A DNA stretch of 10,136 nucleotides. It comes from Acidobacteriota bacterium. GTDB lineage: Bacteria; Acidobacteriota; Aminicenantia; Aminicenantales; Saccharicenantaceae. The notes beneath the pieces are model-generated. The model made no database searches. It was not told the origin of the DNA and was given only the letters and a program-made list of their open reading frames with translations. Where the stretch lies: positions 1 through 10,136 of the forward strand of contig DMVN01000187.1 of NCBI GenBank assembly GCA_003476685.1, given 5' to 3'. How positions within the stretch are numbered: the stretch's first letter is position 1; every line of letters begins with the position of its first letter. The position numbers and the translations under genes are program-made. Positions 1 to 10,136 of the stretch are shown in pieces.

Positions 1-1388
1 ATAATACACCGGAGGGTAAACTAGCATATTCCAAAGGCGCTCCAGAAACAATTCTCAATTCCTGTTCACATATTATGATTGGCGGCACCGTAAAAACTAT
101 TACAGAAAATGATAAAAGTGCCATCCAGGAAACATCCCGACAAATGGCAGGTAATGCGCTACGCGTATTAGGGCTTGCCTACTATCCTATTACCGGTAAT
201 TTATGCTGTAAAGAAGATGTAGAAAAACAAATGGTGTTCCTCGGACTGGCTGGCATGATTGACCCACCGCGTAAAGAAGCAAAAGACGCTATTAAGCTAT
301 GTCATAGCGCTGGTATTAAGACAGTGATGATTACCGGTGACCATAAAATTACAGCCACGGCAGTTGCCAGGGAACTTGGCATACTCCAGAATAATGTCGT
401 CATAACCGGAGCTGACCTAGATGCCATGAGTGATGAAGAATTCAGTCAGAAAGTAGAAAGTATTGATGTTTACGCTCGTGTATCACCCGCCCATAAACTG
501 CGCGTGGTTGATGCTTTTGACAAAAAAGGGCATATCGTCGCCATGACCGGTGATGGCGTCAATGATGCCCCTGCTCTCAAGAAAGCACATATTGGTATCG
601 CTATGGGTATCACCGGTACTGATGTCACCAAGGAAGCCGCCGCAATGGTACTGACTAACGATAACTTTGTCTCGATAGTAGGTGCCGTGGAAGAAGGAAG
701 AGGCATATTCCAGAATATAAAGAAGTTCCTCCTCTACCTGCTTTCTGCTAACGTAGGCGAGGTATTAATTATGTTTGTTGCCGGTGTGCTGGCTATGCCT
801 CTTCCCCTGTTAGCAATTCATTTGCTCTGGATAAATCTGACTACGGACGGATTACCCGCCCTAGCTCTATCTGTTGACCCGGCCGACCCCGATATCATGG
901 AACAACCTCCGCGTGATCCCGGATCCAGTATTTTTTCGCGACGGCTGATAACCCTGATTGCGGCACGCGGTGTTGTGATGGCAGTAGTAATGATAGCCTT
1001 GTTTACCTGGAAACTAACTTCTAATGGCGCTTCTATACGGGATACGGGAAACGTACTTATTCCCGAGGCCCAGACCATGATATTTTGCACTATCGTGTTG
1101 AATGAGCTTGTCAGTGTCTTTGCCTGCCGCTCCGAAATCCACAGTATCTTTAGAATAGGATTCTTCACTAATAAGTGGTTAATCATAGCGACGTTATCAT
1201 CCCTGGCTCTATTCTTGGTTATACTATACATACCGGCATTACAGAGCTTGTTCCATGTCGTTCCCATGCAGCTAATTGACTGGGCCGTGATTATCCCCGT
1301 ATCGCTCTCCGATTTTATTACCATAGAAGTTGTAAAATGGATCTACCGTATTAAGGACCGTAATCATAAGAACATAGCTGCAACATAA
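1..1388 (+). CDS. P2-type cation-transporting P-type ATPase, C-terminal part (Ca2+-ATPase-like), 5' truncated by window edge
   Basis: ATP-driven membrane cation pump; the visible part runs from the nucleotide-binding domain to the last membrane helices. The frame is open to the left edge (first full codon at 3), so the ATG at 75 is internal. Motifs seen: KGAPE of the N domain (33-47), DPPR (261-272), TGDH (333-344) and the P-domain hinge TGDGVNDAP (546-572). The DKTGT phosphorylation site, actuator domain and M1-M4 lie outside. In M5 the NVGE motif (Asn 750-752, Glu 759-761) and in M6 the NLTTD motif (Asn 834-836, second Thr 843-845, Asp 846-848) match SERCA residues N768, E771, N796, T799 and D800. 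A Glu in the M8-like segment fits E908. Calcium transport is therefore the best guess; Mn2+ or another cation is possible. It ends TAA at 1386-1388 and converges on the methyltransferase. It belongs to the low-GC arm. Confidence 0.93.
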   Translation, partial: NTPEGKLAYSKGAPETILNSCSHIMIGGTVKTITENDKSAIQETSRQMAGNALRVLGLAYYPITGNLCCKEDVEKQMVFLGLAGMIDPPRKEAKDAIKLCHSAGIKTVMITGDHKITATAVARELGILQNNVVITGADLDAMSDEEFSQKVESIDVYARVSPAHKLRVVDAFDKKGHIVAMTGDGVNDAPALKKAHIGIAMGITGTDVTKEAAAMVLTNDNFVSIVGAVEEGRGIFQNIKKFLLYLLSANVGEVLIMFVAGVLAMPLPLLAIHLLWINLTTDGLPALALSVDPADPDIMEQPPRDPGSSIFSRRLITLIAARGVVMAVVMIALFTWKLTSNGASIRDTGNVLIPEAQTMIFCTIVLNELVSVFACRSEIHSIFRIGFFTNKWLIIATLSSLALFLVILYIPALQSLFHVVPMQLIDWAVIIPVSLSDFITIEVVKWIYRIKDRNHKNIAAT

Positions 1389-1490
1389 TATCAGAATAAA
1401 CCCGGGCACTAAAATTTTGACCTGTTTTGAGATATACCGGCGAAGATAAAGTACTTCTGCGGTCTCTGCAGGGGAAATATAAATACTCCC
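1389..1490. other. Convergent intergenic gap, no gene
   Basis: About 100 bases lie between the stops of the P-type ATPase (+) and the methyltransferase (-). Short palindromes such as CCCGGG, AAGTACTT and CTGCAG are present, but there is no GC-rich hairpin followed by a T run on either strand, so I do not call an intrinsic terminator. Confidence 0.5.
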
Positions 1491-2087
1491 TTATCCGGAT
1501 TTAGCAAACTGTAACGTATAGCTCAAAAAGTTACCTCTTGAACGTACTAATCTGTATCCTGCTCGTTCACATTGCCGGCGCGTTGTCTTTCGCAAAGGAT
1601 AGTCAGTATCTATCACGAATTCACTTATGGCCAGTACACCCTCTCTTTTAAGAACACGATGTATCTCCTTCAAAGCTCTTGCTGCATCTGGTATCTCTTG
1701 CAGAACATCAACCAGGAATACGGCATCGAAGAAATCTTGTTCAAAGGGTAATTCATAAGCACTTGCCACGCATGTTTCAATATTATTAATCTTTTTGTTT
1801 TCTTCCTTCTCCAGTTTACGCATGAGCTTTTGTATCATTAACGGCTGAATGTCCATAGCATATAGTCTTCCCTCTTCGCCAATAACCCGCGCTATATCCA
1901 GAGTGCACGATCCTGAACCACAGCCCAATTCCAGAACTTTCATCCCGTTTTTTATTCCTGACCTTAATATCATCTTCGCCGGCGGCTGTAACCAGCGCCT
2001 GAGATTTGAATCTAAAAAGTATGTTATGAAAACGGGGACAGGAAACTTATGTATTTTCTTAATAATACGGGGAATGATAATAACCAC
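1491..2087 (-). CDS. Class I SAM-dependent methyltransferase (UbiE/Methyltransf_11-like), probably membrane anchored
   Basis: Transfers a methyl group from S-adenosylmethionine; the substrate cannot be told from sequence. With the GTG start at 2087 the product is 198 aa. The glycine-rich SAM motif LELGCGSG is at about residues 52-59, the acidic end of strand 2 (AMDIQP) at 77-82, a motif II-like DAVFLVDVL at 121-129, then the HRVLKREG segment typical of UbiE-like enzymes at 143-150. The start is uncertain. In-frame codons upstream of the GTG continue a hydrophobic stretch (VLYFFVILAV) that would make a transmembrane helix before the basic IPRIIKK. An AGGAG ribosome-binding-like sequence sits at 2125-2121, but no ATG, GTG or TTG lies just after it. 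The real protein may be about 10 residues longer with a non-standard start, or the sequence may have an error. It lies 163 bases downstream of the hydrolase on the same strand. Confidence 0.85.
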   Translation of the reverse strand: MVIIIPRIIKKIHKFPVPVFITYFLDSNLRRWLQPPAKMILRSGIKNGMKVLELGCGSGSCTLDIARVIGEEGRLYAMDIQPLMIQKLMRKLEKEENKKINNIETCVASAYELPFEQDFFDAVFLVDVLQEIPDAARALKEIHRVLKREGVLAISEFVIDTDYPLRKTTRRQCERAGYRLVRSRGNFLSYTLQFAKSG

Positions 2088-2250
2088 TGCCAGAATAACG
2101 AAAAAATATAAAACCGTACTCTCCTATCCTCAGTAATGCGGTACTGTCAATATTAACTCGATAGTGTTTTTACAAATTCTGCTAATATTTACCATCAGGG
2201 CCATTTATTTCCAGGATACCCCTCCAAATTCAGCGTTCTTATGACGAATT
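2088..2250. other. Intergenic gap between hydrolase and methyltransferase
   Basis: AT-rich spacer on the transcribed (-) strand. It holds a TTGACA-like box at 2150-2145 without a good -10 at normal distance, a 25-codon open frame at 2204-2130, and an AGGAG at 2125-2121 that probably serves the methyltransferase. No clear terminator is visible after the hydrolase. Confidence 0.4.
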
Positions 2251-2991
2251 TTACAGGTAACAGTCAAACCAGTCCCGGCTAATCTGCATAATTTGCTCAC
2301 AATAACAAGGGTCAGTAAAAGAATGGTCAGCGCCCTCCATGATTTCCAGTTTCTTCAATCCGGTAACACGGGCATATATGGCACGGGCGTTTTCCAGAGG
2401 CACCACTTCATCATTACCACCATGAAAAATGAGCAGGGGCTGTTTCATTAATGATACTTGATGAAGAACATCATGCTGTTGCAAATCTGCGAAGAAACCT
2501 GTGCCCAGTTTGTTCCCTGAAGGAAGCTGCACATAGCCTTGCTCTTTGATACTTGCCCATGCTTCACGGGGTGGCTGGGGAAATTCATAAGGTGCTGCTA
2601 GAGTTACGACTACTTTAACACGCGTATCCGATACTGCGAGAACAATAGTAGCACCAAAACTGGAACCGATGACAGCGATACGCTCACTGTTAATATCCGC
2701 CTTCTGTAGATAAGTTAGTGCTGCCTGATAATCTTTTATTCTTGCCGTAAGCGTAGTATCTTCGAATTTGCCTTCACTTTTTGTCTCACCTTCACCACAT
2801 CCCCGGTAGTTAAAGCGTAGTGTCGCAAATCCCAGGCTAGAGAACCACGGGACAAAAAGCTGCCATTTATTGCCATTCATTGAACTCTCAAAACCATGTG
2901 ACAGCAGTACACAAGGCGCACTCTTGCCAGGTGACTGAAATTTGCCTTTTATTACCTGCCCTTCACTGTGGAATTCAATCAATTGTTCCAT
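2251..2991 (-). CDS. Alpha/beta hydrolase (serine hydrolase, dienelactone hydrolase/acyl-peptidase-like)
   Basis: Cytoplasmic serine hydrolase of 246 aa; no signal peptide is seen and the physiological ester or amide substrate is unknown. The oxyanion-hole HGF motif is at residues 32-34 and the NYRGCGEG segment at 61-68. The nucleophile elbow GSSFG is at 109-113 with Ser111. The acid is likely Asp194 in GGNDEVVP, and the base His223 in GADHSF, completing the triad in the usual order. Length and layout fit a compact single-domain family with a short lid around residues 135-175. The ATG at 2991 has a strong AAGGAG at 3006-3001 with nine bases of spacing. The mutS stop is only 18 bases upstream, so the two are probably co-transcribed in this arm. 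It belongs to the low-GC arm. Confidence 0.92.
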   Translation of the reverse strand: MEQLIEFHSEGQVIKGKFQSPGKSAPCVLLSHGFESSMNGNKWQLFVPWFSSLGFATLRFNYRGCGEGETKSEGKFEDTTLTARIKDYQAALTYLQKADINSERIAVIGSSFGATIVLAVSDTRVKVVVTLAAPYEFPQPPREAWASIKEQGYVQLPSGNKLGTGFFADLQQHDVLHQVSLMKQPLLIFHGGNDEVVPLENARAIYARVTGLKKLEIMEGADHSFTDPCYCEQIMQISRDWFDCYL

Positions 2992-3000
2992 ATCACATTA

Positions 3001-3006
3001 CTCCTT
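3001..3006 (-). promoter_or_regulatory. Ribosome binding site of the alpha/beta hydrolase
   Basis: AAGGAG on the - strand, nine bases before the ATG at 2991, directly downstream of the mutS stop. It fixes the hydrolase start. Confidence 0.75.
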
Positions 3007-3009
3007 AAA

Positions 3010-5625
3010 TTATGCCTGTGTCTTACCGTCTTTCTGCACTTTTTTCTGCAATTCGTAGAGCTTGGTAATTGCTTCCAGCGGTGTTAAAGCATCAATTTCC
3101 AGAGTGGAAATCTCATCAGCCAGCAGGGAATTCGCTGCCCACAAGGATAATTGAGGAGTAATTTTACTGATAGATTGCTGCTTACTTCTCCCAGCGGAGT
3201 GGTTCCCATTCTCAAAAGCTGCCAGTACTTCTTGCGCACGATTAATTACGGATCGCGGGAGGCCTGCCAGTTGCGCCACATGAATACCATAGCTCCGGTC
3301 GGCGCCACCAGGCACTATCTTACGTAAAAAAATTACCTCTTTATCTTTTTCTAATACTGCCACATTAAAATTCTTTACTCTGGGAAGAGAGTCTGCCAGT
3401 TCTACTAATTCATGATAATGCGTGGCAAAAAGAGTTTTTGCTCCTAAGCGGGGATTATTATGAATATATTCCGCAACGGCACGTGCGATAGAAATACCGT
3501 CATAGGTGCTGGTACCGCGGCCAATCTCATCGAGGATAATCAGTGACCGCGGGCTGGAATTATTTAAAATATTGGCAGTTTCCACCATCTCCACCATGAA
3601 GGTCGACTGGCCGGCGGTCAAAAAATCCATGGCCCCGACTCTGGTGAAAATCCGGTCCACCAGCCCGATCCTGGCCTGCCTGGCCGGGACGAAAGAACCC
3701 ATCTGGGCCAGCAAGCAGATCAGAGCCACCTGTCTGAGGTAGGTGGACTTGCCGCCCATGTTGGGTCCGGTAATTATCAGGATCTGGTTTTCGTTACGGT
3801 CCAGGTAGGTATCGTTGGGAATGAATGGTTCGCCCTGCACCACTTCTATCACCGGGTGCCTCCCGTCAGCAATAGCCAGGATATCGCTCTCCTCCACCTC
3901 CGGCCGGGTGTAATTCCTCTGGTGGGCTAGCTCGGCCAGAGACAGGAGCACGTCCAGCAGAGCCAGGTTCTGGGCCATCTGCTGCAGGCGGGAAACCTGC
4001 TGGCTGACTTCCTCCCGCACCTGCAGGAAAAGCTCGTATTCCAGCTCGTTACTCCGGGCTTCGGCCCCGAGCACCCGTTCTTCATATTCTTTCAATTCCG
4101 GGGTGATGAACCTTTCGCTGTTGACCAGGGTTTGCTTGCGCTGGTAATCAGCCGGCACCAGGGACAGGTTGGGCCTGGTCACTTCAATGTAGTAGCCAAA
4201 AACCTTATTGTACCTGACCTTAAGCGAGGAGATGCCAGTTCTCTCCCGTTCCCTTCTTTCAATCTGGGCGATGAAAGTCTTACCGGAATGACTGATTTTT
4301 CTCAGTTCATCCAGCTCCTGGTGGAAGCCGGCTTTGATCAGGCCGCCTTCCTGAAGGAGAACGGCCGGTTCATCCAGGATGGCCCGGTCGATTAACCCGG
4401 CCACATCCTGCAGGTTGTCCCAGGAAGACTTTATTTGCTCGAAATTTTCGGCCCGGAAATCCTTAAGCTGGCTTTCAATCTCGGGCAGGGGCCACAGGGA
4501 TTTTTTCAGGGCCACCAGGTCCCGGGGGCTGGCCGCCGCCAGCGAAATCCTGGTGGTCAGCTTCTCCAGGTCGAGAATCTGGCGCAGCTGTTTTCTGATT
4601 TCCTGCCTGACGATGGGCTTCTTTAAGGCTTCCTCCACCGCTTCCTGCCGCCGCCTGATTTCCTGACACTCCAGCAGCGGGTGCAACAGCCAGTTCTTTA
4701 GCAATCTGGCGCCGGGAGCGGTCAGGGTAAAATCAATCACCCCCAGCAGGGATTCGGCCACCTGCCCGGTGCGCAGATTCTTGACCAGTTCCAGGTTGCG
4801 CACGGCGATGGCGTCCAGGACCATGGTCAGGCCCGAAGTCTGATAGGACATCTTCCTGATATAGCCGGCCGTTTCCCGCCTGTTCTTCTTCAGGTAATAA
4901 AGAAGAGCCCCGGCAGCGGACACCGCCAGCGGTCGGCCCTGCAGTCCGAAACCCTCCAGTGAAGCTACCCGAAAATGCTCGAGAAGCAGGCTTGAAGCCT
5001 GCGAGTAATCAAAAGACCAGGGCTCAACCTGGCTGAGGGCCAGGTCGGCCAGGTCGGTCGAGGCCAGCAGACCTTTTATGACCGGTTCCTGGCCTTCGGG
5101 ACAGATTATTTCTTTCGGCCCGAGGCGGAATATCTCGTCCAGCAGAGCCTTGCGGCTGGCCTCCTCCCCATCCATAGCTATTATCTTGCCGGAGAGGAGG
5201 TCAGTGCTGGCTGCGCCCCAGCGGCCGTCGGTCAGAATCAGGCTCAGGACACCGAAGCTTTCGGCCCGGTCCTCGCCCTCAATTTCCACTGCCGTCCCGG
5301 GAGTGAGCACCTTGATAACTTCTCGCCTGACCACGCCCCTGGCCTGTCTCGGGTCTTCCACCTGCTCGCAGATGGCCACTTTGTAACCGGCTTTCAGCAG
5401 CCGGGCCAGGTAAGAATTCACCGAGTGATAGGGCACGCCGCACATCGGGACATTCTGACGGGAGGTCAGGGCGATACCCAGCAGGGCCGAGCCCAGGTGG
5501 GCATCCTCAAAAAACATTTCATAAAAATCGCCTAGCCGGAAAAAGAGCAGGCAATCCCGGTGCTGGGCTTTAATCCGGTGATACTGCTCCATCATCGGGG
5601 TCAGGGTATCGTCTTTTCTGTTCAT
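3010..5625 (-). CDS. mutS: DNA mismatch repair protein MutS (possibly a hybrid of two mutS genes)
   Basis: Recognises base mismatches and small loops in DNA and, with ATP, recruits MutL. With the ATG at 5625 the product is 871 aa, usual for MutS1. The N-terminus reads DTLTPMMEQY like other MutS proteins. The mismatch-reading Phe-x-Glu is F34 and E36 in GDFYEMF. Connector, lever and clamp regions follow; then Walker A GPNMGGKST at about 620-628, STFMVEM at 674-680, Walker B LIILDEIGRGTS at about 695-706 and the ATHYHEL histidine loop at 734-740. The frame is open to 5712, but those 29 extra codons are not MutS-like and cover the divergent promoter region. Base composition jumps from about 58% to 42% GC at 3581-3604 (residues about 675-682). 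The first three quarters therefore match the right arm and the last quarter the left arm. Confidence 0.95.
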   Translation of the reverse strand: MNRKDDTLTPMMEQYHRIKAQHRDCLLFFRLGDFYEMFFEDAHLGSALLGIALTSRQNVPMCGVPYHSVNSYLARLLKAGYKVAICEQVEDPRQARGVVRREVIKVLTPGTAVEIEGEDRAESFGVLSLILTDGRWGAASTDLLSGKIIAMDGEEASRKALLDEIFRLGPKEIICPEGQEPVIKGLLASTDLADLALSQVEPWSFDYSQASSLLLEHFRVASLEGFGLQGRPLAVSAAGALLYYLKKNRRETAGYIRKMSYQTSGLTMVLDAIAVRNLELVKNLRTGQVAESLLGVIDFTLTAPGARLLKNWLLHPLLECQEIRRRQEAVEEALKKPIVRQEIRKQLRQILDLEKLTTRISLAAASPRDLVALKKSLWPLPEIESQLKDFRAENFEQIKSSWDNLQDVAGLIDRAILDEPAVLLQEGGLIKAGFHQELDELRKISHSGKTFIAQIERRERERTGISSLKVRYNKVFGYYIEVTRPNLSLVPADYQRKQTLVNSERFITPELKEYEERVLGAEARSNELEYELFLQVREEVSQQVSRLQQMAQNLALLDVLLSLAELAHQRNYTRPEVEESDILAIADGRHPVIEVVQGEPFIPNDTYLDRNENQILIITGPNMGGKSTYLRQVALICLLAQMGSFVPARQARIGLVDRIFTRVGAMDFLTAGQSTFMVEMVETANILNNSSPRSLIILDEIGRGTSTYDGISIARAVAEYIHNNPRLGAKTLFATHYHELVELADSLPRVKNFNVAVLEKDKEVIFLRKIVPGGADRSYGIHVAQLAGLPRSVINRAQEVLAAFENGNHSAGRSKQQSISKITPQLSLWAANSLLADEISTLEIDALTPLEAITKLYELQKKVQKDGKTQA
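3581..3604. other. mutS: Compositional breakpoint inside mutS (probable contig chimera or recombination junction)
   Basis: Left of this site codons are AT-leaning (bases 3301-3600: 127/300 G+C). Right of it they are GC-rich (3601-3900: 175/300). The site holds a near-perfect 9-base tandem, TCCACCATC then TCCACCATG (3581-3598), encoding MVEMVE on the - strand. This is one of the most conserved stretches of MutS, so an identical short sequence in two unrelated mutS genes is plausible. The frame and domain order are undisturbed. Confidence 0.7.
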
Positions 5626-5652
5626 GGGATTGGTTTGTAACCTATAAACTAT

Positions 5653-5658
5653 ATTATA
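5653..5658 (-). promoter_or_regulatory. Candidate -10 box for mutS
   Basis: A perfect TATAAT reads on the - strand 27 bases before the mutS ATG at 5625. At 17-base spacing the upstream hexamer (GCGGTT) is poor. A TTGCAA lies only 13 bases upstream. The call therefore rests on the -10 and its position alone. Confidence 0.4.
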
Positions 5659-5705
5659 TCCGGTCTTTAATTTGCAACCGCTCCCGGCCTCTTCCTCCAT
5701 TTGAT

Positions 5706-5734
5706 TTGACAATCGGGGCCATAAGTTTTAGTAT
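5706..5734 (+). promoter_or_regulatory. Sigma-70-type promoter of pgsA
   Basis: A consensus -35 TTGACA (5706-5711) is followed, after exactly 17 bases, by TAGTAT (5729-5734; four of six match TATAAT). Transcription would begin near 5741, giving a leader of about 30 bases before the pgsA ATG at 5770. Confidence 0.65.
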
Positions 5735-5769: not shown

Positions 5770-6318
5770 ATGAATGCACCGACTGTCCTGACCATAATCA
5801 GAATGCTGGCCATCCCGGGATTGGTAGCTGTAATGCTTACTCCTTTTCCCGGTCATGAAGTGGTGGCCTTTGCCGTGTTCGTGCTGGCCTGCCTGACCGA
5901 TATGCTGGACGGCTTCTGGGCCAGGAGAAAAAAGCAGGAAACGGTTCTCGGGTCATTGCTCGACCCGCTGGCCGACAAGCTGCTTATCGCCTCAGCTCTC
6001 ATTTGCCTGGTGGAAGGCGGGGTGGTGGCGGCCTGGATGGCCATCATCATCGTCGGACGGGAGCTGGCTGTAACCGGTTTCCGGGCTATTGCCGCTTCCC
6101 GCGGTTTTCACATTCCCGCTTCTGGCTGGGGAAAGCTCAAGATGATTTTCGAGACGGTAATCGTGGCCATCCTGATTCTCGGACAGACCCACCTGGGCCT
6201 GCTCTACCGCCTGGCCCATAATTACGGTTTATGGCTGGTGGTGATTATTGCCCTGGCTTCAGCCCTGGAATATTTCATCCGCTTTGGACCGCAGGTAATA
6301 AAAGAGACTTCAGCCTGA
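5770..6318 (+). CDS. pgsA: CDP-diacylglycerol-glycerol-3-phosphate 3-phosphatidyltransferase (phosphatidylglycerophosphate synthase)
   Basis: Inner-membrane enzyme that joins CDP-diacylglycerol and glycerol-3-phosphate to give phosphatidylglycerophosphate and CMP, the committed step to phosphatidylglycerol and cardiolipin. The 182 aa length is normal. The CDP-alcohol phosphotransferase signature D-x2-D-G-x2-A-R-x8-G-x3-D-x3-D is complete: D44, D47, G48, A51, R52, G61, D65 and D69. A GRE follows at 96-98 and a GKLKM at 121-125, both usual in PgsA. Several hydrophobic helices are visible (about 6-24, 30-46, 70-95, 127-140, 152-170). The N-terminus MNAPTVLTIIR is typical, supporting the ATG at 5770, although the ribosome-binding site is weak. 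It is divergent from mutS and its last 9 bases overlap the end of fabD. Related phosphatidyltransferases share the signature, but size and flanking motifs favour PgsA. Confidence 0.93.
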   Translation: MNAPTVLTIIRMLAIPGLVAVMLTPFPGHEVVAFAVFVLACLTDMLDGFWARRKKQETVLGSLLDPLADKLLIASALICLVEGGVVAAWMAIIIVGRELAVTGFRAIAASRGFHIPASGWGKLKMIFETVIVAILILGQTHLGLLYRLAHNYGLWLVVIIALASALEYFIRFGPQVIKETSA

Positions 6319-7233
6319 AATTGCCTGGCGGCAGCTTTCCAGCGAGTTCATATCTTCCACATTGAACAAACTCGGGGCTTCAGCCCACGGCCGGGAAATT
6401 CTTTTCAAAAGACCCGTCAGGACTTTGCCCGGACCCAGTTCCACTGCCTGCCTAACCCCCAGTTCCCGCAGGCGCTGCATGGCTGGATACCAGAGAACCG
6501 GGCTGAAGACCTGGCGGTAGAGCAATTCCCTGGCCTCCTCCCCGGAACTTATTTCGCGGGTGGTAACGTTGGAGATTACGGGAAAGGCCGGGTCGCGAAA
6601 ATTGATCTTTTCCAGGTCGGCCCTGAGTTTTTCGGCCGCGGGCTTCATCAAGCTGGTGTGGAAGGGGCCACTCACCTGAAGCAGCACCGAACGCGGCGCT
6701 TTCAAAACGGCCAGGGCTTCTTCCACAGCTTCTTTTTCTCCGGCAATGACAACCTGGTCCTCGGCGTTCCAGTTAGCCACCTGGACCAGGCCGGAGCTGA
6801 CCGCCTTCAAACCCTCCTCCACTTTTTGATAATCGAGGCCAAGGACGGCGGCCATAGTCCCCTGCCCCGGCGGCACGGCTTCCATCATGTAGCGGCCGCG
6901 GTTATGGACCAGTTTTACTGCTTCGGCAAAATCAAGACTCCCGGCGGCCACCAGGGCTGAGTATTCACCAAGACTGTGGCCGGCCGCCAGGTCCGGTTTT
7001 ATTCGGAGCAGGCGAAAGGCTATATAGCTGACCGTAAGCAGGGCTGGCTGAGCCCGGCTGGTCAGACGCAACTCCTCTTCGGGACCCTCCAGGCACAGGC
7101 GGGAAAGGCTGAAACCCAGCGCTTCATCAGCCAGGTTGAAAATCTCCCTGGCTTCCTGGCTGCGTTCAAAAAAATCCCGGCCCATTCCCACCGCCTGCGA
7201 ACCCTGACCTGGAAAAAGGAAAATTCTGCTCAT
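6310..7233 (-). CDS. fabD: Malonyl-CoA:ACP transacylase FabD
   Basis: Cytoplasmic enzyme that moves malonyl from CoA to acyl carrier protein, feeding fatty acid elongation. The product is 307 aa, the usual size. Seen: FPGQGSQ at 7-13, nucleophile elbow GHSLGE at 85-90 with Ser87, Arg112 in the NRGRYMMEAV segment (counterpart of E. coli R117), the catalytic His192 in GPFHTSLM, and ELGPGKVLTGLLKR near the C-terminus. The start is the ATG at 7233: the protein begins MSRIFLFPGQG as expected and AAAGGA (7245-7240) lies six bases upstream. The frame is open further upstream, but that part overlaps the preceding gene and is not FabD-like. The SurA-like gene ends 11 bases before the start, so fabD is the last visible gene of the envelope operon. 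It converges on pgsA with a 9-base overlap. Confidence 0.96.
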   Translation of the reverse strand: MSRIFLFPGQGSQAVGMGRDFFERSQEAREIFNLADEALGFSLSRLCLEGPEEELRLTSRAQPALLTVSYIAFRLLRIKPDLAAGHSLGEYSALVAAGSLDFAEAVKLVHNRGRYMMEAVPPGQGTMAAVLGLDYQKVEEGLKAVSSGLVQVANWNAEDQVVIAGEKEAVEEALAVLKAPRSVLLQVSGPFHTSLMKPAAEKLRADLEKINFRDPAFPVISNVTTREISSGEEARELLYRQVFSPVLWYPAMQRLRELGVRQAVELGPGKVLTGLLKRISRPWAEAPSLFNVEDMNSLESCRQAISG

Positions 7234-7239
7234 AGCTTT

Positions 7240-7245
7240 TCCTTT
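7240..7245 (-). promoter_or_regulatory. Ribosome binding site of fabD
   Basis: AAAGGA on the - strand, six bases before the ATG at 7233. It decides the fabD start against longer upstream options and touches the stop codon of the SurA-like gene. Confidence 0.6.
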
Positions 7246-7922
7246 CATCTGATTTTTTTCAGGCATTCGGGAAAAATTGCTATTTCGGCCCTCTGCCTGA
7301 GTTCCCGGGTCCATTCTTTAACCCGTTCCTCTCGCAGTTTATTCTGAAGCCTGGCTTCAATTTCATCCAGAACGATTACCAGCTCGGCCGGGCTCTGACC
7401 GGCAGCTTTTTGTTCGGGCAGGTAGACCTGCTGGTAATAATCCTCTATTTCTTTCAGTGAAACATAAAGCCTCTGGTTGAACCTGGTGCCTATGACCTTC
7501 TCAAAAAGAATCTTATCCTGAAGGTATCCGGTCAAGTCTTCCGGCTTCAGACCCAGGGCCTGGCACCGGCTGTCAAACGCCTCCGCTCCCAGCCTGGTCT
7601 TCAGGCGCTCCAGTTCAGCTTCAACTTCTTCCGAAGTTACCTGGAGTTGCTCGCGGGTCAATCTCAGGACCAGCAGAACATCGATATACTTTTCCAGCCT
7701 GTCTTCGGCCGCCAGTGCTTCGTTGTTCATTCCGGGCAGCAGGTTAAAAGCTTTCAAGACCTCCAGGTCAAACCAGGTTACCGGGATGTTATCCACGCTG
7801 GCCACCAGGCAATTGAGCAGTTCCTGCCCGCTGCCCGGGGTAATAACCATAAATAACAGCAGTGCCAGCAGTCCGACCAGCCGGGCGCCATAAATCTTTT
7901 CTCTGGTAGCTTTATTAAACAT
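7245..7922 (-). CDS. SurA N-terminal-domain-like periplasmic protein without a prolyl isomerase domain
   Basis: Probable exported chaperone-like protein of 225 aa. A basic N-terminus (NKATREK) is followed by a hydrophobic stretch at about 15-28, then PGSGQ, consistent with a signal peptide or a single membrane anchor. The mature part starts with a short strand-like LVASVDNIPVTWFDLEVLKAF (about 39-59), as in SurA_N/PpiC-type proteins (VAxVxxxxITxxDL). A charged helical region with ExE-rich segments follows at about 72-215. No parvulin domain is present: the protein ends where one would begin. The family assignment is by pattern and is moderate. The ATG at 7922 has AGG (7933-7931) eight bases upstream, overlapping the stop of the Omp85 gene. 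Position directly after an Omp85 gene suggests a role in delivering or folding outer-membrane proteins; that role is inference. Confidence 0.7.
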   Translation of the reverse strand: MFNKATREKIYGARLVGLLALLLFMVITPGSGQELLNCLVASVDNIPVTWFDLEVLKAFNLLPGMNNEALAAEDRLEKYIDVLLVLRLTREQLQVTSEEVEAELERLKTRLGAEAFDSRCQALGLKPEDLTGYLQDKILFEKVIGTRFNQRLYVSLKEIEDYYQQVYLPEQKAAGQSPAELVIVLDEIEARLQNKLREERVKEWTRELRQRAEIAIFPECLKKIR

Positions 7923-7931
7923 CGATTCAAC

Positions 7932-10136
7932 CTAAAACATGTTGCCTATGGTCAGGAAGAAGCCGGGTTTCCATTTGTTGCCCGGCGGATTGAGATTCCA
8001 GCCAACATCAAACCTGATTGGACCGAGAGGGGTTCGGTAGCGCAAACCAAGCCCGGCCGCCTGGCTTAGCTTGAGAAAATTGAAATCCCGGATTTCGGGA
8101 AAGACCTGGCCGACGTCATAAAAAATCGCCCCGTAGAGGTTGGGCAACTTCTTCAGCAGCAAAAACCGGGCTTCCATGTTCAGCAGGAATATGGACCGTC
8201 CGCCAACCGGCAGACCTGATTCGGGGTCTTTCGGACCGAGCATTTCAAAGGCCTCTCCCCGGAAGGAATTGCTGCCCCCGGCAAAAAATCTTTCCGGGAT
8301 GGGAACGGTGCCCGAGGCCAGGCCGAACCTGAGGGTGGTATTGAAATTGATACCGGGAGCCAGCGGGTAGAAGTACAGAAACTTGGCAAACAACTTGAGG
8401 AAATTGGATTCGGTTTCCAGCAGGGGGTAAGCCCTTTCCAGGGCCAGGCTGAAGAAATAGCCGCTGGAGGGATTGAAGGTGTCATTCCGCCGGTCCTGGA
8501 TAAATGTGGCCGAACCGTAGGCAATGGAATAAGGCAAACGTTCCCTCTCCACTTCCGATTCTTCGATCTGCAGGTTGGTAAGCTTGGTCCTTAAAGCTCC
8601 GGCGGCCAGCAACAGGGAAAAACCGGCCGGCAGATTTCTCATGGTGGACAGAGTCAAGCCTCGCCTTTCATAGCTGAAGCTGGTCCGGTCTTCTTTTTCC
8701 AGGTAACCGCTGAAATAGGTTCTCATCCTCAGACCGAGGAAATGCGGCTGCTGCCAGGTGGCCACCAGCCTTTTCTCCACCAAACTGAGCTGGCCAACCA
8801 GGCTAAACTGTGAAGCATTGCCCAGCAGGTTATACCTTATGTACTCGGCTGTTATTCTTGGCCTGAGTTCGTTTTCCCAGAGGGCCAGGGACCGGGCTTC
8901 CTCCCTGGTTTCAATACCCAGTCCCAGCCCGGCAAAATTCTGTTCCCCTTCCCTGACCTGGATCGACAGATTCATGGAATTGTCGGCCGCCGGGAGCTCT
9001 TCCAGTTTAATTTCTGAAAACACTCCCAGTCTGTCCAGTCCCCGCTTGGTCTCCAGCAAACGGTTATATTCAGCCCAGTCTCCGGGGCGCAGCCGAACTT
9101 CTCGCAGGATGATATTCTTGTGGGTCAGGTGGTTACCGGTGATGAAAATATTGCCTACCTGGAACCGCCGGCCTTCGTTAACTCTGATGACCACGTCCAG
9201 GTTGTTTTCGCGGTCCGGAGTGGCCTCGACCTCCAGCTGGGTGCCCCGGAAGCCCCGGTTGAGGTAGAGCTGATTTATCTTTTCCAGGTCCCTCTGCATC
9301 CGCGGCTTGTAATAAGGCTGGCCAGGACGGGTATCCAGCAAACGGAACATCTCTTCCACTGGCAGGACGGCCGCTCCCTGGATTTCCAGGCTCCGAACCA
9401 TCTGCCTGGGCCCTTCTTCAATAAAATAAACCGGCCGGGCTGAATTATCCTTGCGGCTGAAATTCAGGGTCACCCGGGTCTGGGGGAAACCCTGTTCAGC
9501 ATAAAACAACCTGATTTTTTCGGGCAGGTCGTAGACCTCCTGTCCGTCGAGATAGGGAAAGAAGAGGAATTTTTCCCCTATTCCCAGGTTCTTCTTGATT
9601 TCCCTGTGGCTGAAGGTTTTATTGCCCCGAAACTCAATCTCTTTTATCTCCAGCTTCGGCCCCTGGTGCACTTCGTAAATAACCAGGAGTTCATTTCCTT
9701 CACGTTTGAGGCGAGGCCGGACTGTGGCCAGCAGATAGCCCCGTTTTCTTAATTGCTTCAGGAGCAGAGCCTCTCCCTCGGACAGGGCCCACTCTTCAAA
9801 AACTTTCTGTTCCCAGACCGGCTGCACTATTTTCGGAGATAGGTTGGTCCCGAGCAGCCGGACTGAAATCTTAACCGACGGGTTCAGGCTGATAACCAGG
9901 TCGACCGTACCCTTCTGCTGGTCCACCTCTTCCCGGGCCAGTTTGACTTCAGCCCAGTTATATCCGAGTTTGTTATAGGCACGCCGGATGCGAGCCAGGG
10001 CTGCCTCCAGCTTTCTCGGCACATAATAATCGCCGCTCTTCAAGCCGAGCAATCCCTGCAATTTATCTTCGGCGATTAAGTTCTGACCTTCGAACACAAT
10101 TTGGCGGATGGCCAGGCGTCTCCAGCCCGGGAGCCG
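7932..10136 (-). CDS. Omp85-family outer-membrane protein (BamA/TamA-like) with five or more POTRA domains, N-terminus outside the window
   Basis: Outer-membrane beta-barrel that inserts or translocates other outer-membrane proteins. The frame is open through the right edge, and the residues upstream of the GTG at 10097 (LAIRQIVFEGQN) complete a POTRA strand, so that GTG is internal. Counting from it, POTRA-like units end near residues 72, 147, 229, 309 and 385. Each starts with an I/V-x-I/V...G-N/T strand (EIEFRGNKTF, NIFITGNHLT) and closes with a V-x-EG-like strand. The barrel covers about 388-721, near 330 residues, enough for 16 strands. It carries the Omp85 hallmark RFFAGGSNSFRGE at 603-615 and ends in TPLGPIRFDVGW and a terminal Phe, as outer-membrane barrels do. 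BamA versus TamA cannot be decided without the missing N-terminus and upstream genes. The stop TAG is 9 bases before the SurA-like start, indicating one operon. Confidence 0.93.
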   Translation of the reverse strand, partial: RLPGWRRLAIRQIVFEGQNLIAEDKLQGLLGLKSGDYYVPRKLEAALARIRRAYNKLGYNWAEVKLAREEVDQQKGTVDLVISLNPSVKISVRLLGTNLSPKIVQPVWEQKVFEEWALSEGEALLLKQLRKRGYLLATVRPRLKREGNELLVIYEVHQGPKLEIKEIEFRGNKTFSHREIKKNLGIGEKFLFFPYLDGQEVYDLPEKIRLFYAEQGFPQTRVTLNFSRKDNSARPVYFIEEGPRQMVRSLEIQGAAVLPVEEMFRLLDTRPGQPYYKPRMQRDLEKINQLYLNRGFRGTQLEVEATPDRENNLDVVIRVNEGRRFQVGNIFITGNHLTHKNIILREVRLRPGDWAEYNRLLETKRGLDRLGVFSEIKLEELPAADNSMNLSIQVREGEQNFAGLGLGIETREEARSLALWENELRPRITAEYIRYNLLGNASQFSLVGQLSLVEKRLVATWQQPHFLGLRMRTYFSGYLEKEDRTSFSYERRGLTLSTMRNLPAGFSLLLAAGALRTKLTNLQIEESEVERERLPYSIAYGSATFIQDRRNDTFNPSSGYFFSLALERAYPLLETESNFLKLFAKFLYFYPLAPGINFNTTLRFGLASGTVPIPERFFAGGSNSFRGEAFEMLGPKDPESGLPVGGRSIFLLNMEARFLLLKKLPNLYGAIFYDVGQVFPEIRDFNFLKLSQAAGLGLRYRTPLGPIRFDVGWNLNPPGNKWKPGFFLTIGNMF

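What the first reader, a model, noticed from the sequence alone, without database searches (positions are those of the whole stretch)
3301..3900. mutS looks like a join of two different genomes
G+C jumps from 127/300 (3301-3600) to 175/300 (3601-3900), with the change at about 3581-3604. The shift persists across all genes on each side, not just mutS. The junction lies in the highly conserved STFMVEMVET stretch, where two unrelated mutS genes could share an identical run of 20 or so bases, and it contains a 9-base tandem. The frame is kept, so gene calling alone would not reveal it. The right arm encodes an Omp85 protein (diderm), while the left arm looks like a different, possibly Chloroflexota-type, genome. 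Most likely a metagenome assembly chimera; homologous replacement of the mutS 3' end with its downstream genes is the biological alternative.
Basis: partly seen in the sequence, partly recalled or inferred. Interest (0 to 1): 0.75.

Follow-up and report, generated by a model that had tools for sequence, protein, structure and literature searches.

The report
Assembly chimera inside a mutS gene
This stretch of DNA is very probably two unrelated bacteria joined by mistake inside one conserved DNA-repair gene during computer assembly, so the hybrid gene should be treated as an artefact and not as biology.

Summary
Right of about 3604 the contig is Candidatus Saccharicenans: collinear with same-genus genome G002 at 90-93% DNA identity, MutS N part 96%. 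Left of about 3577 it is Dehalococcoidia (Chloroflexota): the last 198 MutS residues are 194/198 identical to P0001, otherwise an ordinary Dehalococcoidia-type MutS. The next gene adjoins mutS in Dehalococcoidia genome G061, and the two beyond it are neighbours there. Saccharicenans genomes searched hold no close copy of the left-arm genes. Trees of the two MutS parts put the window in different phyla.

The switch lies on a 26-base string (3578-3603) found unchanged in 3 of 7 Saccharicenans mutS genes and 3 of 21 Dehalococcoidia loci; 23 of the 24 places where G002's mutS shares a 25-base word with those 21 loci are here. A short-k-mer assembler would join genomes there. The native continuation (about 8.6 kb in G002) was not found in the bin, while contig C211 carries its far side.

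Real cross-phylum recombination is not excluded without reads, but is very unlikely. Low interest; useful as a contamination flag.

The parts
1..3577 (.). Left arm, of Dehalococcoidia (Chloroflexota) origin; it runs to the contig end
   Evidence: Window base 1 is base 1 of contig C16. 71% DNA identity to Dehalococcoidia genome G061 in two blocks, 1-2082 and 2266-3675 (the second block runs on into conserved mutS past the switch). Tetranucleotide distance to the pooled bin 0.462, against at most 0.263 for 101 windows of the same length from 35 sampled contigs, and 0.163 to the G061 locus
3..1388 (+). Cation-transporting P-type ATPase, 3' part (5' end cut by the contig end)
   Evidence: PF00689 and PF00702; 78% identical in G061, 46-51% in 16 Saccharicenans genomes
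1491..2087 (-). Class I methyltransferase, convergent with the ATPase gene
   Evidence: PF13847 and others; about 70% in G061 beside its ATPase gene, there in two pieces two bases apart, so that copy may be frameshifted; at most 37% in Saccharicenans
2251..2991 (-). Alpha/beta hydrolase, directly downstream of mutS
   Evidence: PF12146; 66% and directly downstream of mutS in G061
3010..3577 (-). mutS 3' part, Dehalococcoidia origin
   Evidence: 194 of 198 residues from STFMVEMVET on identical to P0001; 65-82% to 21 Dehalococcoidia loci; 45-52% to 15 of 16 same-genus loci and 63% over only 128 residues in the other
3578..3603 (-). Switch zone: 26 bases found unchanged in natural mutS genes of both groups
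   Evidence: In 3 of 7 Saccharicenans mutS genes, 3 of 21 Dehalococcoidia loci, 0 of 79 other mutS loci
3604..5712 (-). mutS 5' part, Saccharicenans origin; the open frame starts at 5712, the gene probably at 5625 (871 residues in all)
   Evidence: 71-96% to 16 same-genus loci, 42-47% to 21 Dehalococcoidia loci; start by comparison with P0121
3604..10136 (.). Right arm, Candidatus Saccharicenans, native to the bin: mutS 5' part, CDP-alcohol phosphatidyltransferase (5770-6318 +), FabD-type acyltransferase (6310-7314 -), protein without Pfam match (7245-7922 -), Omp85 (7932-10136 -)
   Evidence: 90% DNA identity and collinear with G002, C16 going on at 93% beyond the window; the same gene order in the 8 same-genus loci compared; Pfam

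Best explanation
Contig C16 is a metagenome-assembly chimera. An assembler walking a short-k-mer graph left the Saccharicenans mutS gene at a word of about 26 bases (3578-3603, coding the STFMVEMVET stretch) that is identical in a co-occurring Dehalococcoidia mutS, and continued into that genome for 3.6 kb until the contig ended. Shown: two phylogenetic origins, the place of the switch, the shared 26-mer in natural genes of both groups, non-hybrid relatives on both sides, and failure to find the native continuation in the bin. Inferred: the assembler step itself, and that both organisms were in the sample.
For: Two-part trees with 41 hand-picked rows each: the N part joins G002 and P0121 (100/99) inside Saccharicenans (100/99), the C part joins P0001 (99/97) and then G061 and P0002 (100/99). 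P0001 is 76% identical to P0002 along its whole length, so it is an ordinary Dehalococcoidia-type MutS that ends in the window's C part. Left-arm gene order is that of G061 in two blocks. At k=25, 23 of 24 positions of G002's mutS that share a word with any of 21 Dehalococcoidia loci lie within 25 bases of the switch, at k=26 22 of 22. The native DNA from C211's end (G002:C34:72,222) to the switch was not found in the bin. Of the 4 listed records that match one part at 90% or more (P0001, P0121, P0122, P0123), none has the other part. [quoted passage not shown]
Against: No reads, so no coverage test. The DNA of the true Dehalococcoidia parent could not be read, and G061, its nearest readable relative, shares at most 10 bases with the 70 bases around the switch, so the 26-mer in the parent is inferred from more distant members. 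Homologous recombination would also favour an identical run. With 79 mutS loci of other groups G002 shares 25-base words at 27 positions, the commonest near the gene start, so the switch is the hot spot for Dehalococcoidia and not for every group. Other Dehalococcoidia DNA was not seen in the bin sample, so co-binning of that genome is not shown.
Confidence: 0.95

Rival explanations
1. Real homologous replacement: a Saccharicenans cell took up Dehalococcoidia DNA, and recombination at the conserved mutS codons replaced the mutS 3' end and the genes after it, giving a hybrid MutS.
For: The frame is kept, and the hybrid has the five MutS domains. The identical run could serve as a crossover point. 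The foreign arm is only 2% off P0001 in its MutS part, as a recent transfer would be.
Against: Outside the hinge the gene parts are about 50% identical in protein. No second crossover is seen, as the foreign arm runs to the contig end. None of 16 same-genus mutS loci carries it and no other listed record joins the two parts. Composition of the arm is that of G061 and not of the bin.
Confidence: 0.04
2. One genome with natural variation in G+C, mutS being vertically inherited throughout.
For: G+C does vary inside other contigs of the bin (change-point gains up to 21.3).
Against: The two parts of MutS and the genes on each side have nearest relatives in different phyla.
Confidence: 0.005
3. A second join also lies inside the left arm, at about 2083-2265, so that the contig holds three pieces.
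For: In G061 the ATPase-methyltransferase pair is on contig C25 and the hydrolase-mutS pair on C72, with other DNA next to each pair; 2083-2265 matches neither.
Against: G061 is only 71% identical in DNA, so gene order may simply differ; third-position G+C is alike on both sides (0.39 and 0.39).
Confidence: 0.15

Closest known systems
Inter-genome chimeric contig of de Bruijn graph metagenome assembly (described in PMC4496567 and PMC8171044, both seen as passages)
   Same: Two genomes meet at an exact word both share, inside a conserved gene, and the frame survives because the word is homologous.
   Different: Nothing observed differs; the read evidence that would prove it is missing.
MutS of Candidatus Saccharicenans (P0121; G002)
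   Same: 96% identical from residue 26 to 700, with the same upstream neighbours.
   Different: Its last 190-odd residues are about 51% identical to those of the window.
MutS of Dehalococcoidia (P0001; G061)
   Same: The last 198 residues are 98% identical in P0001 and the last 190-odd 82% in G061; in G061 the same hydrolase gene follows.
   Different: The N part is 42-47% identical in 21 Dehalococcoidia loci.

Membership tests
Assembly chimera | The two sides have nearest relatives in different lineages, and the same switch is absent from relatives | tested here: met
   none of 16 same-genus mutS loci and none of the listed best 120 rows of each of two protein searches joins the parts
Assembly chimera | The switch lies on a word that both source genomes share exactly | tested here: inconclusive
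   26-mer present in members of both groups and in G002 (38-base run), but the true Dehalococcoidia parent's DNA was not readable and G061 lacks it
Assembly chimera | Read pairs do not support the junction, or coverage differs between the arms | not testable with these tools
   No reads or coverage available
Horizontal transfer by homologous recombination | Foreign segment flanked on both sides by native sequence, or seen in more than one independent genome | tested here: not met
   The foreign arm runs to the contig end, so the second side cannot be seen; no second genome found
MutS (mismatch repair protein) | MutS domains I to V in one open frame | tested here: met
   PF01624, PF05188, PF05192, PF05190, PF00488, but as a hybrid of two genes

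The most novel reading that the evidence does not exclude
A genuine, recent recombination between phyla produced a working hybrid MutS: Acidobacteriota mismatch-binding and clamp domains with the C-terminal ATPase part of a Chloroflexota MutS, together with three foreign neighbour genes.
Probability: 0.03. Interest if true: 0.8.

Novelty: not a real feature. Interest (0 to 1): 0.1.

Why it matters
It shows how a chimera can pass gene calling, domain annotation and contamination estimates when the join falls in frame in a conserved codon run of a common marker gene: the hybrid scores all five MutS domains and the bin is rated 1.21% contaminated. Anyone using MutS of this bin for phylogeny, or claiming cross-phylum transfer of the left-arm genes, would be misled. 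The shared-word map is a simple test for a suspected join: does it fall on the one exact word that both lineages share?

Tried and rejected
Considered and rejected: natural G+C variation in one genome; transfer of the whole mutS gene (the N part tracks the host genus); a second mutS copy in the bin (one match only).

Led nowhere: BLAST of the left arm against 39 sampled stretches of the bin (4 of them all N) gave one 66% hit, in C90, which is the bin's own ATPase gene, so no second piece of the Dehalococcoidia genome was seen; that is a sample and not the whole bin. The search for the native continuation scored 40 of 119 first-look candidates. The hybrid MutS of the window itself did not appear in the listings, although the hydrolase did (P0241, on a contig of 14,684 bases); I cannot say why, so the absence of other hybrids rests on the best 120 rows listed of 7,999 and 7,996 scored. 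The 21 Dehalococcoidia loci are the 20 best-scoring loci plus L058, not a random draw. The trees used 12 of the 16 same-genus loci; L029, L031, L032 and L034 were left out beforehand (L031 has a deletion; L029, L032 and L034 carry stops inside, as does L036, which was kept). The paper search on MutS mosaics was seen as a listing only and gave no cross-phylum hybrid.

Papers: PMC4496567 and PMC8171044 were seen as passages; the others as search listings only.

Full report
Observation. The step separates 0.438 from 0.554 and is carried mostly by third codon positions: 0.39-0.44 in the four left-arm pieces against 0.60-0.72 in the five right-arm pieces. A single-change model gains 67.4 log units on contig C16, against at most 21.3 for 19 other stretches of 5 kb or more from the bin. 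G+C alone leaves the place open between 3470 and 3584; comparison with relatives puts it at 3578-3603.

Setting. The window is bases 1-10136 of contig C16 (14,684 bases) of a bin of 1.93 Mb in 262 contigs, 79.8% complete and 1.2% contaminated. Same-genus genome G007 has a mutS contig of 19,641 bases, the length given for P0122, which NCBI names Candidatus Saccharicenans sp.; the host genus is therefore taken to be Saccharicenans. That this lies in Acidobacteriota, class Aminicenantia, is partly my own knowledge; hits named Aminicenantes, Aminicenantales and Acidobacteriota bacterium fit it.

Right arm. The window is collinear with G002 at 90% DNA identity up to 10136, and C16 goes on at 93% (that alignment starts at 3349, inside the conserved codons left of the switch). 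MutS N part, CDP-alcohol phosphatidyltransferase, FabD-type acyltransferase, a protein without Pfam match, and Omp85 stand in the same order in the 8 same-genus loci compared. The N part of MutS is 71-96% identical in 16 same-genus loci and 42-47% in 21 Dehalococcoidia loci.

Left arm. MutS from STFMVEMVET to the end is identical to P0001 at 194 of 198 residues. P0001 is 76% identical to P0002 along its whole length, and P0002 is nearly identical to the G061 protein. G061 was drawn from the class of G040, the genome of locus L058, whose record title reads Dehalococcoidia bacterium. In G061 the gene directly after mutS is the window's hydrolase (66%), and methyltransferase (about 70%, in two pieces) and ATPase (78%) are convergent neighbours as in the window. 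In DNA the left arm is 71% identical to G061 in two blocks, 1-2082 and 2266-3675, on different G061 contigs.

Left-arm genes in Saccharicenans. Hydrolase: of 9 other genomes searched, 8 have hits, all of 23-26%, and G002 has none. Methyltransferase: of 18 other genomes 16 have hits, none above 37%. ATPase: all 18 have hits, 46-51% in the 16 whose best hit covers most of the query. The bin has its own, different ATPase gene at the end of contig C90 (55% over residues 7-255).

Two-part phylogeny. The same 41 hand-picked rows were used for both parts. The N part puts the window with G002 and P0121 (100/99) within Saccharicenans (15 rows, 100/99). The C part puts it with P0001 (99/97), then with G061 and P0002 (100/99), within the Dehalococcoidia rows (13 rows, 94/86, just under the tool's star threshold).

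Composition. The left arm's tetranucleotide distance to the pooled bin is 0.462; 101 windows of the same length from 35 sampled contigs reach at most 0.263; right-arm windows lie at 0.158-0.225; the left arm is 0.163 from the G061 locus. Its G+C of 0.438 lies below the lowest of the 101 windows, 0.470.

The hinge. The 26 bases at 3578-3603 occur unchanged in mutS of G002, G014 and G015 (3 of 7 Saccharicenans genes tested), in 3 of 21 Dehalococcoidia loci (L178, L185, L190) and in 0 of 79 other mutS loci. At k=25, 24 positions of G002's mutS share a word with any of the 21 loci, and 23 of them lie within 25 bases of the switch; at k=26 it is 22 of 22. With other Saccharicenans genes as reference it is 24 of 29 (G014), 35 of 35 (G015) and 10 of 12 (G010) at k=25. 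Against the 79 loci of other groups, shared words are spread elsewhere as well (27 positions at k=25 for G002, the commonest near the gene start), so the hot spot is specific to this pair of groups. Against the reading: G061 shares at most 10 bases with the 70 bases around the switch, and the DNA of the true parent could not be read.

Missing native side. The last 9.46 kb of the bin's contig C211 are collinear with G002:C34 at 92%, and C211 ends at the equivalent of C34:72,222. In G002 mutS ends at C34:80,247, 8.0 kb further on; the part up to the switch is about 8.6 kb. A search of the bin with this stretch found only short matches of 68-78% besides C211's end. So the native continuation seems unassembled or unbinned, and the Dehalococcoidia arm stands in its place.

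Chimera or biology. A real exchange would need recombination between genes about 50% identical in protein, resting on tens of identical bases, and a second crossover that is not seen. The 4 listed records that match one part at 90% or more (P0001, P0121, P0122, P0123) all lack the other part. [quoted passage not shown] a benchmark reports about 60% to 87% chimeric contigs among the 500 longest for several assemblers on one test set (PMC8171044, passages). I put the artefact at 0.95. Read mapping would settle it.

Verdict.

Noticed in passing
L132 near 7837 (G007:C22); proteins P0122 and P0123: Two Saccharicenans MutS records (840 residues, from different sources, differing at several residues) share an in-frame loss of 38 residues, window residues 692-729, which takes away STFMVEMVET and the stretch before GRGTST that I recall as Walker B. 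In relatives the ends of the lost piece bear a short repeat (about GGTCGGG). A natural mutS deletion (possible mutator) or a shared assembly fault.
   Followed up: partly
window 2083-2265: Gene order compared with Dehalococcoidia genome G061 breaks here: ATPase-methyltransferase and hydrolase-mutS lie on different G061 contigs, and 2083-2265 matches neither. A rearrangement or a further join.
   Followed up: partly
L206 (G020:C169:15000-19935): In a same-family genome the contig ends inside mutS at window residue 686, some 50 bases before the switch zone; perhaps another assembly break at these conserved codons.
   Followed up: no
window 7245-7314: The FabD-type ORF and the ORF upstream of it overlap by 70 bases on the same strand; the FabD start is probably further in.
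   Followed up: no
L161 (G000:C90), 6294-7049: The bin's own cation ATPase gene, 55% identical to the left-arm one over residues 7-255, is cut by the contig end.
   Followed up: no
L007, L014, L153, L167 (G000 contigs C5, C20, C7, C220): 4 of the 39 other contigs fetched from the bin read entirely as N.
   Followed up: no
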